Assembly (NCBI RefSeq): GCF_000092205.1
Contig: NC_014216.1
Location: forward strand, 1,116,001-1,180,000
DNA from: Desulfurivibrio alkaliphilus AHT 2
GTDB lineage: Bacteria; Desulfobacterota; Desulfobulbia; Desulfobulbales; Desulfurivibrionaceae
Length of the DNA stretch: 64,000 bases
Reading direction: 5' to 3'
Positions 635 through 7,425 of this stretch are shown here, piece after piece (the stretch's first letter is position 1; every line of letters begins with the position of its first letter). The notes under the pieces are model-generated. The model searched no databases. It had not been told where the DNA came from and saw nothing but the letters and a program-made list of their open reading frames with translations. The position numbers were made by a program, and so were the translations under genes.

Positions 635-671
635 CGCCGCCCGCAGGTATCACTTGTGGGCGGCGTTTTTT
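635..671 (+). terminator. Rho-independent terminator of the chemoreceptor gene
   Basis: An 11-bp GC-rich stem (CGCCGCCCGCA pairing with TGTGGGCGGCG, one G-T wobble) is followed directly by TTTTTT, about 43 nt after the stop codon. Confidence 0.88.
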
Positions 672-909: not shown

Positions 910-1710
910 ATGCCCAACCATTCCGCCACCGACGGACTCCAATTACAGCATGCCCTGGACCGGATGGATCAACCCACGGCGCTGTACAAGGACGGCGAGC
1001 ATGCCGTGTACTGGCTGGGAGTGCCGGAAGACACGGCCTTTCGCAGCAATATCTACCTGATCCGGGACGGCGGACATGGTTTGCTGGTGGATCCCGGCAG
1101 CCGCCACTTATTCGAGCAGGTTTACCGGCGGGTGGCGCAGATCATGCCCCCCGACTCCTTGGCGGGCATGATCATTTGCCACCAGGATCCCGATGTGGCA
1201 GCCTCCATGGGCCAGTGGTTGACCGTCAACCCGGCCATGAAGGTGCTGACCACTCCCCGCAACCAGGTCCTGCTGCCCCACTACGATCCTCCCGCCTATG
1301 AATTTTACGACGTCGAAGCCAACCCCGAATACCGGTTGCCCTCGGGCCGTTCGCTGCGCTTCATCCCCGCCCCCTTCCTCCATTTCCCCGGAGCTTTTAC
1401 TACCTACCACGCCGCCGCCCGACTGCTTTTTTCCGGTGACATATGGGCGGCCATTGATCTTGACTGGCAACTGGTGGTCTCTTCTTTTGCCGAGCATATC
1501 CCGGCCCTGGATCTTTTTCACACCGAGTACATGGCTTCCAACCTGGCGGCTCGCGGCTTTGTGCAACGGTTGGACGGCCTGCCCATCGACGCCATCCTGC
1601 CCCAGCACGGTTCCCTCATCGGCCCGGCCATGGTGCCGGAAGCCCTGGAATACCTGCGCCAACTGCGCTGCGGCACCGACATCATCTACGCCGGGCTGGA
1701 CCAACCATGA
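910..1710 (+). CDS. MBL-fold protein of the ODP (di-iron flavodiiron-like) type
   Basis: The 266-residue protein has a metallo-beta-lactamase fold with the metal ligands spaced as in the oxygen-binding di-iron domain of flavodiiron proteins: HQDPD (H91, D93, D95), H158 in HFPGAF, D177 in FSGDIW and H233 in QHGSL. The flavodoxin domain of true flavodiiron proteins is absent, so it is unlikely to reduce O2 or NO with its own FMN. Its stop overlaps the start of the following GAF-GGDEF gene (ATGA), implying translational coupling. I infer a di-iron O2/NO/redox sensor that acts with the cyclase. No strong ribosome-binding site precedes the ATG, so the start is uncertain by a few codons. Confidence 0.82.
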   Translation: MPNHSATDGLQLQHALDRMDQPTALYKDGEHAVYWLGVPEDTAFRSNIYLIRDGGHGLLVDPGSRHLFEQVYRRVAQIMPPDSLAGMIICHQDPDVAASMGQWLTVNPAMKVLTTPRNQVLLPHYDPPAYEFYDVEANPEYRLPSGRSLRFIPAPFLHFPGAFTTYHAAARLLFSGDIWAAIDLDWQLVVSSFAEHIPALDLFHTEYMASNLAARGFVQRLDGLPIDAILPQHGSLIGPAMVPEALEYLRQLRCGTDIIYAGLDQP

Positions 1711-2897
1711 ACGGCGAACGCGACCGCCCCCAACCGCCACATGGTTCCCAGGAGTGGCGCCTTTGCCGGCTGGAGCGGGAAAACCGCCTGCTGCGCCAGG
1801 GCATCAGCCAGGGGCAACGGATGAAAGAGCTGTGGCGCCAAGCCATGGACGACTTGCAGGCCGCCAATGATAAGCTGGCCCGGCGCAACCGACGTCTGGC
1901 CACCTTACAACAGGTGTCGGCGGCCATCAGTGCAACCATTGAGCAGGAAGAGCTGTTCCGGCACATCATCGATGCCATGGCCCGGCTGATTGACCTGGAA
2001 GGGCGATGGCCGCTGGGCATCTTCCTGGTGGAACCCGACGGCACCATGCGTTTGGCGGCCCACCGCAACGTGCCGGATCATTTCATCCTGGCCCACCAAA
2101 AAATGCGGGTCGGCGACTGCCTATGCGGGCGCGCGGCCCGGGGAGAGCTGATCATCACCCCGCGATGCCAAGCCAAAGCCTCGCGCCACATCGCCCCAGG
2201 CCCCATGCCGGAGCACGGTCACCTGCTGCTGCCGCTGTACGCCAAGGAACGGGTGGTTGGGGTGTTTTTTTATTATCTGCCCCCCGACCTGACCCTCACC
2301 AAAGCCGAGCTGGAGACCTTCCAAACGGTGAGCTACCAGCTCGGGCTGGCCATCGACAACGCCCGACTGTATGAAACGGTGCGCCGCCTCTCCATCTACG
2401 ATCCTTTAACCGGCCTGTTCAACCACGGCCAGTTTTACAACCTGCTGGCAGAAGAGCTCTCCCGCCACCAACGCACCGGCCGCCCCCTTTCCCTCCTGAT
2501 GCTGGATATCGACCATTTCAAGAAGGTCAATGATACCTACGGCCACCGGGCGGGGGATGCCGTTTTACAGCAACTGAGCGGGCTACTGAAAAAACAGGCC
2601 CGGGCCATCGACCGGGTCTGCCGCTACGGCGGCGAAGAACTGGCCCTGATCCTGCCGGAAACCGACCGGGAAGCGGCCCGGCAAACCGCCGAACGCCTGC
2701 GCCGGCACGTTGAAAAATGCTGTTTCGCCACCTGCGGCCAGCAAGAAATCGGGGTTACCGTAAGCATTGGAGCAGCCACCTGTCCCGATGCTGCAATCAG
2801 CGCCGAAACCCTGGTAAACGCAGCGGACCGAGCTCTCTACGCCGCCAAGCGGGCCGGCCGCAACCGGGTATGCAGCAACGGCTCCTGCGCGCGCTGA
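1707..2897 (+). CDS. GAF domain diguanylate cyclase (GGDEF)
   Basis: This 396-residue soluble protein should make cyclic di-GMP from two GTP. An N-terminal coiled coil (about 17-70) leads to a GAF domain (about 73-222), then a GGDEF domain with the active-site loop GGEEL (308-312). The inhibitory I-site RxxD (RAID, 299-302) lies exactly five residues before it, so product inhibition is expected. There is no membrane segment and no EAL or HD-GYP domain. The ATGA overlap with the upstream MBL-fold gene suggests that this protein supplies the sensory input. The GAF ligand is unknown. Confidence 0.92.
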   Translation: MNGERDRPQPPHGSQEWRLCRLERENRLLRQGISQGQRMKELWRQAMDDLQAANDKLARRNRRLATLQQVSAAISATIEQEELFRHIIDAMARLIDLEGRWPLGIFLVEPDGTMRLAAHRNVPDHFILAHQKMRVGDCLCGRAARGELIITPRCQAKASRHIAPGPMPEHGHLLLPLYAKERVVGVFFYYLPPDLTLTKAELETFQTVSYQLGLAIDNARLYETVRRLSIYDPLTGLFNHGQFYNLLAEELSRHQRTGRPLSLLMLDIDHFKKVNDTYGHRAGDAVLQQLSGLLKKQARAIDRVCRYGGEELALILPETDREAARQTAERLRRHVEKCCFATCGQQEIGVTVSIGAATCPDAAISAETLVNAADRALYAAKRAGRNRVCSNGSCAR

Positions 2898-6659: not shown

Positions 6660-6698
6660 GCTCCCAAAAGATTCAACCCAATCGAGGAGGACCTGAAA

Positions 6699-7425
6699 AT
6701 GGCAAATGGCTTCAACTTTTCCCTAAAGCAAAAAATGCTCATCCCTCTTCCGGCCTCGGTGCTTATTTCCGCCTTACTGGCCCCCTTGGTTAAGCGGGAG
6801 CTGGACCGGCTTAGCGGCAGTTTCAAAGAGAACACAGCTACCGACAAACAGGGAGAGGTGGAGCGGGCCGTGGCTCGAGCCGGCCAGGATGCTATAGAGA
6901 AAGCCACGGTTTTTACCCGCCTGCCGGAGGTTTTAGGAGCCTACGCCATTGCCCATCAGGGCAACATCGATAACCCCGATGATCCTTAAGCCCAAGAAGC
7001 TCGGGAAATGCTGCGCCGGCAACTGGGAGAAGCGATGCATGGCTTCAGCGACGCCGCCGGCGCGCCCATGCAGTTGCATTTTCAACTGCCCAATGGCCGT
7101 AGCCTGGTACGGATGTGGCGGGAGCGGCAAATCCAGCGGGATGGCGCCTGGGTGGATATATCCGATGATATTTCCGTTTTTCGCCCCACGGTGATGGAGG
7201 TTAACCGCAGCGGACGGCCGGTTACCGGCATTGAAGTGGGCCGGGGCGGTTTTGTGGTCCGGGGGGTGACCCCCCTCCGTTCCCCCGATGGCCGCTTTTC
7301 CGGTTCAAGATTACCGTGACCAGCAGATCGTAGTCATGGTCTTTGCCAGCGATACCACGGCGGTGGAAGACAGCATACGTAACGTCTTTTTTATTCTGGG
7401 CGGCATGGGTATATGCGGTTGCAGC
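6699..7425 (+). pseudogene. Broken chemoreceptor sensor domain (dCache-like), in-frame stop plus frameshift
   Basis: A frame begins MANGFNFSLKQKM, has one membrane segment (about 13-30) and reads for 96 codons to an in-frame TAA at 6987-6989. The same frame resumes at once (AQEAREMLRRQLGEAM) and continues to about 7300 with motifs I associate with double-Cache chemoreceptor sensor domains (RSLVRMWRERQ, GIEVGRGGFVVRG). The similarity then passes to frame +1 (DQQIVVMVFASDTTAVED) and stops at a hydrophobic segment near 7420. The HAMP and signalling domains are absent. The stop is TAA, so selenocysteine or pyrrolysine recoding is not an explanation. It ends shortly before the heme kinase. Confidence 0.8.

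What the first reader, a model, noticed from the sequence alone, without database searches (positions are those of the whole stretch)
910..2897. Di-iron ODP-like protein coupled to a diguanylate cyclase
A flavodiiron-type metal site without the flavodoxin domain overlaps (ATGA) a GAF-GGDEF cyclase with intact active and inhibitory sites. A two-protein O2, NO or redox switch for c-di-GMP is plausible in an anaerobe. The usual fused forms are here split into two coupled genes.
Basis: partly seen in the sequence, partly recalled or inferred. Interest (0 to 1): 0.58.

Follow-up and report, generated by a model that had tools for sequence, protein, structure and literature searches.

The report
Di-iron sensor plugged onto a cyclase
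Two overlapping genes probably make a two-part oxygen or redox switch, in which a small iron protein controls a c-di-GMP-making enzyme through a short helical adapter that relatives reuse on quite different signalling enzymes.

Summary
Window 910-1710 encodes a stand-alone ODP (oxygen-binding di-iron protein; PF19583, 207 bits) with all six metal-ligand positions and no flavodoxin. It overlaps by ATGA a GAF-GGDEF cyclase (1707-2897). The cyclase signature is GGEEL, not GGD/EEF; the RxxD I-site is intact. The genome has a second ODP-GGDEF pair, and a sister species keeps this pair with the same overlap. ODPs next to or fused with signalling genes are already in print, so the kind is known. The claim that fused forms are usual is wrong: in this ODP subfamily 3 of 52 loci are fused and 45 are split.

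What looks new is a ~48-residue N-terminal coiled-coil adapter on the cyclase (window 1746-1892) with an invariant glutamine. The same adapter heads histidine kinases, GGDEF, GGDEF-EAL and HD-GYP proteins, but only when encoded just after this ODP subfamily. In 50 genomes 49 of 50 adapter hits (E<=0.002) follow such an ODP. In genomes outside that set 6 of 6 strong new hits do. In the window's genome the only hits are its two pairs. Best reading: an exchangeable O2/redox sensor subunit docking on this adapter. Docking, signal and sign of control are inferred.

The parts
910..1710 (+). ODP gene: stand-alone di-iron metallo-beta-lactamase-fold protein, 266 aa (P0001)
   Evidence: PF19583 207 bits; nearest solved chains are ODPs
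1180..1194 (+). codons of H91, D93, D95 in HQDPDV, first part of the six ligand positions
   Evidence: invariant in 40 of 40 ODPs; identical in solved ODPs
1381..1383 (+). codon of H158, ligand position
   Evidence: invariant in 40 of 40
1438..1440 (+). codon of D177, ligand position
   Evidence: invariant in 40 of 40
1606..1608 (+). codon of H233, ligand position
   Evidence: invariant in 40 of 40
1707..1710 (+). ATGA stop/start overlap of the two genes
   Evidence: same overlap in the sister species
1707..2897 (+). GAF-GGDEF diguanylate cyclase gene, 396 aa (P0002)
   Evidence: Pfam GGDEF 164 bits, GAF_2 60 bits
1746..1892 (+). N-terminal coiled-coil adapter (P0002 residues 14-62) shared with the other partners of this ODP subfamily; invariant Q35 at 1809-1811
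   Evidence: A4, 46 rows, Q 46 of 46; specificity
1944..2357 (+). GAF domain with CxCG...HGH motif
   Evidence: motif seen in P0002 and its paralogue
2394..2867 (+). GGDEF domain
2601..2612 (+). RAID inhibitory site (RxxD)
2628..2642 (+). GGEEL active-site signature
635..665 (+). terminator-like hairpin between the upstream MCP gene and the pair

Best explanation
The two genes make a two-protein switch. The ODP is a dedicated sensor subunit whose di-iron site reacts reversibly with O2 (or reports iron/redox state), as reported for T. denticola ODP. It binds the N-terminal coiled-coil adapter of the GAF-GGDEF protein and changes helix register or dimer packing, which turns c-di-GMP synthesis up or down at oxic-anoxic boundaries. 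Shown here: the ODP fold, conserved ligand positions, gene coupling, a duplicated pair, and an adapter found only on genes that follow this ODP subfamily and shared across kinase, cyclase and HD-GYP outputs. Inferred: direct binding, docking on the adapter, O2 as the signal, and the sign of regulation.
For: ODP identity by family, solved relatives and fold; six ligand positions invariant in 40 of 40; overlap kept in the sister species; second pair in the genome. Adapter: two hits in the own genome at E<=10, exactly the two ODP partners; 49 of 50 hits (E<=0.002) in 50 genomes lie 10-165 nt after a subfamily ODP; 3 of 3 strong new hits in Campylobacteria and 3 of 3 in a gammaproteobacterial order are adjacent. 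In the natural ODP-kinase fusion L112 the adapter follows the ODP domain directly. Adapter similarity follows ODP similarity across cyclase-kinase pairs (rho 0.365, 0 of 1000 permutations). ODP as an auxiliary subunit that binds iron and O2 and interacts directly with its receptors is stated in a review passage.
Against: No binding or activity data for this pair. Linkage alone could keep adapter and ODP together. The adapter set in the 50 genomes is partly the training set. L132 and L139 carry the ODP without a recognisable adapter partner, and matches in the GGDEF fusions L062/L137 and L090 are weak (0.08 for L137). The fold of the L112 fusion gave no docking information. GGEEL could mean lowered cyclase activity.
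Confidence: 0.68

Rival explanations
1. The adapter is an ordinary dimerisation or signalling helix that stays next to the ODP because recombination swaps only the 3' part of the partner gene; the ODP touches its partner elsewhere, for example at GAF, PAS or the catalytic domain.
For: The segment has a heptad pattern; linkage explains co-inheritance; GAF and PAS domains also occur in the partners.
Against: An ordinary helix would also occur on unlinked kinases and cyclases, and it does not. The one invariant residue is a glutamine outside the hydrophobic core, 46 of 46. Domains after the adapter differ from partner to partner.
Confidence: 0.2
2. The ODP is an enzyme (O2 or NO scavenger, or a zinc hydrolase) and its position next to signalling genes only means co-expression.
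For: MBL-fold proteins are mostly enzymes, and flavodiiron proteins of the same fold are reductases (family knowledge).
Against: No flavodoxin domain as electron donor. The motif is HxDxDV, not the HxHxDH of zinc hydrolases (recalled). 48 of 52 subfamily loci are coupled with signalling proteins (with for L110 and L111). The genome has a flavodiiron protein elsewhere, next to a rubrerythrin.
Confidence: 0.07
3. The true signal is NO, iron supply or another metal rather than O2; the pair works as described but with another input.
For: Flavodiiron relatives react with NO (PDB titles); T. denticola ODP is described as a sensor of iron and O2 (title of the 2019 paper, seen).
Against: A solved T. 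denticola ODP entry is a peroxy di-iron species. Sequence alone cannot decide.
Confidence: 0.3

Closest known systems
ODP of T. denticola (TDE2498) and T. maritima, chemotaxis sensors (PDB 6qrq, 6qnm, 6r9n, 6qwo; Muok et al. 2019, not read)
   Same: Family, fold, ligand positions and stand-alone form; acts as a separate subunit next to its output gene
   Different: Their output is a soluble chemoreceptor and CheA; here it is a GGDEF cyclase with a specific N-terminal adapter. P0001 belongs to another subfamily, about 33% identical to them
Two-protein H-NOX switches (L. pneumophila Hnox1/Lpg1057, S. woodyi SwH-NOX/SwDGC, S. oneidensis HnoX/HnoK)
   Same: Separate gas sensor and separate cyclase or kinase, one sensor family serving both outputs
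   Different: Heme sensor of unrelated fold that senses NO; whether H-NOX partners carry a shared adapter was not tested here
Bacterial hemerythrin cyclase VcBhr-DGC
   Same: Di-iron O2/redox control of a diguanylate cyclase
   Different: Unrelated helical fold, fused in one protein
Flavodiiron proteins (ROO, FprA, flavorubredoxin)
   Same: Same MBL fold and ligand positions
   Different: They carry a flavodoxin domain and reduce O2 or NO; P0001 lacks that domain

Membership tests
ODP (PF19583) | match to the family profile over its full length | tested here: met
   207 bits against a cut-off of 27.2, 194 of 194 positions
ODP (PF19583) | six ligand positions H, D, D, H, D, H | tested here: met
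   invariant in 40 of 40 ODPs, as in solved ODPs
ODP (PF19583) | no flavodoxin domain | tested here: met
   266 aa; no such domain found
ODP (PF19583) | nearest solved fold is an ODP | tested here: met
   ranks 1-10 are ODP chains
ODP (PF19583) | di-iron site that binds O2 as a stable peroxo adduct | not testable with these tools
   needs spectroscopy
Flavodiiron protein | flavodoxin domain fused to the MBL domain | tested here: not met
   absent
Zinc MBL hydrolase | HxHxDH motif (recalled) | tested here: not met
   HQDPDV, invariant H, D, D
Diguanylate cyclase | GGDEF domain with GG(D/E)EF signature | tested here: inconclusive
   domain 164 bits; signature is GGEEL
Diguanylate cyclase | c-di-GMP synthesis | not testable with these tools
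   needs an assay
Adapter-bearing ODP partners (group described here) | A4 adapter at the N terminus of a gene directly after a subfamily ODP | tested here: met
   P0002 5.4e-15 and the paralogue 8.3e-17 in the own genome (both are rows of A4)

The most novel reading that the evidence does not exclude
This ODP subfamily is an exchangeable O2/redox-sensing subunit. One coiled-coil adapter of about 48 residues with an invariant glutamine is a universal socket that lets the same sensor drive histidine kinases, diguanylate cyclases, GGDEF-EAL and HD-GYP enzymes, and bacteria of several phyla have re-plugged it onto new outputs many times.
Probability: 0.5. Interest if true: 0.66.

Novelty: new variant of a known kind. 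Interest (0 to 1): 0.55.

Why it matters
How stand-alone gas sensors transmit to enzymes that have no sensor domain of their own is poorly understood; for ODP only the chemoreceptor case turned up in the papers I could see. A short adapter shared by kinases and cyclases would give a defined binding site to test and a sequence tag that predicts which signalling proteins obey an ODP. It would also be a simple way to put new outputs under di-iron O2 control. The hosts named by the records (sulfur and iron oxidisers, sulfate reducers and relatives, Bacteroidales from lakes) are typical of oxic-anoxic borders (general knowledge), where such a switch between swimming and settling would be useful.

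Tried and rejected
Rejected: zinc hydrolase and flavodiiron reductase (motif, missing flavodoxin). Rejected: 'usual fused forms split' (counts). Considered: a direct link to the upstream MCP, as in published ODPs. In the window the MCP gene ends 317 nt before the ODP, with a terminator-like hairpin between; in the sister species an MCP follows the cyclase by 25 nt, so a link there is open.

Led nowhere: a mixed alignment of fusion, ODP-only and partner-only rows (A5) misplaced the partner rows and was not used for folding. The fold of the natural fusion L112 (A7; mean pLDDT 69) was confident mainly in the ODP domain and says nothing on docking; it shows one long helix from residue 267. The adapter matched no Pfam family in more than 2 of 46 members. 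The GAF region found no convincing solved relative (best 0.021). The output-change count rests on a quick tree with a weakly supported backbone. Papers: the primary ODP paper is not held. Searches showed no work on an ODP-cyclase pair; the c-di-GMP sensory census PMC8846402 has no occurrence of 'ODP' or 'lactamase'. What I saw of papers: passages of PMC7319448, PMC7666581, PMC9665402, PMC8846402, PMC9388753, PMC8738867, PMC6978683 and PMC10653840; search listings for the rest. Searches were for analogues and for the organism.

Full report
WHAT IS THERE. Window 910-1710 (+) encodes a 266-residue protein and 1707-2897 (+) a 396-residue protein, overlapping by ATGA. The window lies in a single-contig genome of 3,097,763 bases. 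The length fits Desulfurivibrio alkaliphilus from memory, and the nearest named relative is Desulfurivibrio sp. AMeS2. The first protein is an ODP: Pfam PF19583 at 207 bits over the full profile. Its nearest solved chains are the ODPs of Thermotoga maritima and Treponema denticola. Its AlphaFold2 model (pLDDT 90.8) matches those ODPs best and flavodiiron proteins next. The six positions that hold the two irons in this fold (assignment recalled from flavodiiron proteins) are invariant in 40 of 40 aligned ODPs. The second protein has GAF and GGDEF domains, an RAID inhibitory site, and GGEEL in place of GGD/EEF. The sister species has the same GGEEL, so it is not a sequencing error. Whether it lowers activity is unknown.

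THE PAIR IS REAL. The sister Desulfurivibrio keeps both genes with the same overlap (85% and 74% identity). The genome has a second ODP (62% identity) followed by a second GAF-GGDEF; the two cyclases are 37% identical. A third PF19583 match in the genome is a flavodiiron protein beside a rubrerythrin (named by me from the sequences). In the class, PF19583 hits occur in 239 of 257 genomes, but most score like flavodiiron proteins. I fetched the 54 places scoring 149 bits or more. Only four belong to the close subfamily of P0001 (L051, L062, L086, L087), in 3 of the 257 genomes. The subfamily is therefore patchy.

RELATIVES. A scan of one genome for each of 84,980 species gave 98 relatives, of which the best 80 were kept. 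L088-L139 (52 loci, 49-86% identity) form one subfamily, marked for example by W35 in 33 of 33 aligned members. By record title they are Bacteroidota (14), Campylobacterota (13), Gammaproteobacteria (13), Zetaproteobacteria (6), Desulfobacterota (3), and one each labelled Alphaproteobacteria, Myxococcaceae and unassigned. L129 and L130 gave the same coordinates and scores, and L088 and L137 repeat places already in hand (L051, L062). Output next to the ODP among the 52: histidine kinase downstream 31; GGDEF downstream 11, at least two of these being GGDEF-EAL; fused GGDEF 2; fused kinase 1; HD-GYP 1 (L111); PAS only 1 (L110); adapter in a short ORF with a GGDEF-EAL ORF behind it 1 (L124); none found or contig end 4 (L132, L134, L135, L139). 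The next group, L140-L167 (28 loci, 31-36%), has GGDEF fused in 3, GGDEF downstream in 21 and none in 4; five of the downstream partners were put to Pfam, and four were GGDEF-EAL. Coupling of ODPs to c-di-GMP enzymes is therefore widespread, and the split form is the common one. Both sets were picked by similarity to P0001, so they are not a census of all ODPs.

THE ADAPTER. 48 downstream partners aligned together share an N-terminal segment although their outputs are unrelated. Trimmed to about 48 residues, with L112, L124, L139 and L137 left out and the window cyclase and its paralogue added, it gives alignment A4 of 46 rows. One residue is invariant, Q35 of P0002 (46 of 46). Hydrophobic residues repeat every seven, and the glutamine is outside that core (register assigned by me).

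SPECIFICITY. A profile of this segment against 6,823 ORFs of the fetched loci found, with E below 1e-8, only partners of this subfamily, the fused kinase L112 (at residues 267-314, directly after its ODP) and the short L124 ORF; partners of the L140-L167 group did not match. Matches in the fusions L062 and L090 were not significant (1.4 and 3.5). In the window's own genome A4 finds two places at E<=10, the two ODP partners. In 50 genomes that hold the subfamily, A4 has 60 hits at E<=0.1 and 50 at E<=0.002. Of the 50, 49 start 10-165 nt after a subfamily ODP match on the same strand. The other sits at base 58 of a contig, in a genome whose ODP is cut by another contig end. Of the ten weaker hits one is adjacent (fusion L137). 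Of 55 subfamily ODP places 50 have an adapter hit at E<=0.1; none of 20 other-type places does. This set is partly circular, because A4 was built from most of these loci; four of the pairs were new to it. In other genomes: among 298 Campylobacteria, one of them (G642) already known, hits below 1e-7 are G642 plus three new ones, all three directly after a subfamily ODP. The eleven weaker hits (1.5e-4 to 0.01) do not lie next to an ODP. The subfamily ODP occurs in the same four genomes only. Among 210 genomes of the order of a Sedimenticola genome, nine have adapter hits, three of them new and all three adjacent. Ten genomes have the ODP; the tenth is the L132 case. Two of those three new ones look like close relatives of rows in A4 (same 316-aa kinase). 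Second ODP copies in four genomes (L222-L225) are followed by a diverged adapter that keeps the glutamine; three of these partners carry a GGDEF, and the one in L224 is only a 138-aa ORF. Three of these genomes thus hold an ODP-kinase pair as well as an ODP-cyclase pair, although one of the second ODPs (L225) is split into two ORFs.

EVOLUTION. On an ODP tree of 64 rows the output type changes at least nine times (18 cyclase, 31 kinase and 1 HD-GYP row counted; 6 subfamily rows without a label and 8 outgroup rows not counted; quick tree, weak backbone). Across cyclase-kinase pairs (13 x 30) adapter similarity follows ODP similarity, rho 0.365, and none of 1000 permutations reaches it. Shared host lineage contributes to this as well.

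MECHANISM. Most likely the ODP is an auxiliary sensor that binds the adapter and shifts the coiled coil of the cyclase dimer when its di-iron site changes state. Direct binding of iron and O2 by ODP, and its direct, conformation-dependent interaction with its receptors, are stated for the chemotaxis case (review passage). For this pair, binding, signal and sign are inferred. The GAF domain may be a second input: this GAF type occurs only in the two ODP cyclases of this genome at E<=0.001, and both carry a CxCG...HGH motif.

NOVELTY. ODPs in operons with, or fused to, signalling genes were reported in 2019 (as told in PMC7319448), and H-NOX gives the working analogue of one sensor family serving a kinase or a cyclase. 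The shared adapter and its exclusivity I did not find in print in the searches named under Tried and rejected, but the primary paper could not be read. Hence a new variant of a known kind.

Noticed in passing
window 6690-7389: Remnant of an MCP gene: matches residues 19-225 and, in another frame, 311-344 of the intact 718-aa MCP that follows the ODP-cyclase pair in the sister species (L051). The rest of that reading frame is missing here.
   Followed up: partly
L140-L167 (e.g. L142:2472-5239, L156:5010-7962): A second ODP group, in methanotrophs, Aquificota, Burkholderiales and Legionella, is mostly followed by GGDEF or GGDEF-EAL genes that lack the adapter; how that sensor couples is open.
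   Followed up: partly
window 1944-2357 and the paralogue in L086: The GAF domains of both ODP cyclases share a CxCG...M..HGH motif; possibly a metal or redox site, a second input.
   Followed up: partly
L124:3297-7006: The adapter lies in a separate 85-aa ORF between the ODP and a PAS-GGDEF-EAL ORF; either a broken partner gene or a free-standing adapter protein.
   Followed up: no
L107:4263-4967: In lake Bacteroidales a gene of about 235-249 aa sits 5-11 nt before the ODP-kinase pair; the one checked is a PAPS-reductase-family protein, hinting at a sulfur-linked operon.
   Followed up: partly
L053, L054 (Desulfobulbia): ODP-GGDEF fusions of 607-608 aa from another ODP branch, grouping with fusion L172 on the tree (L053): fusion to GGDEF arose on more than one ODP branch.
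   Followed up: no
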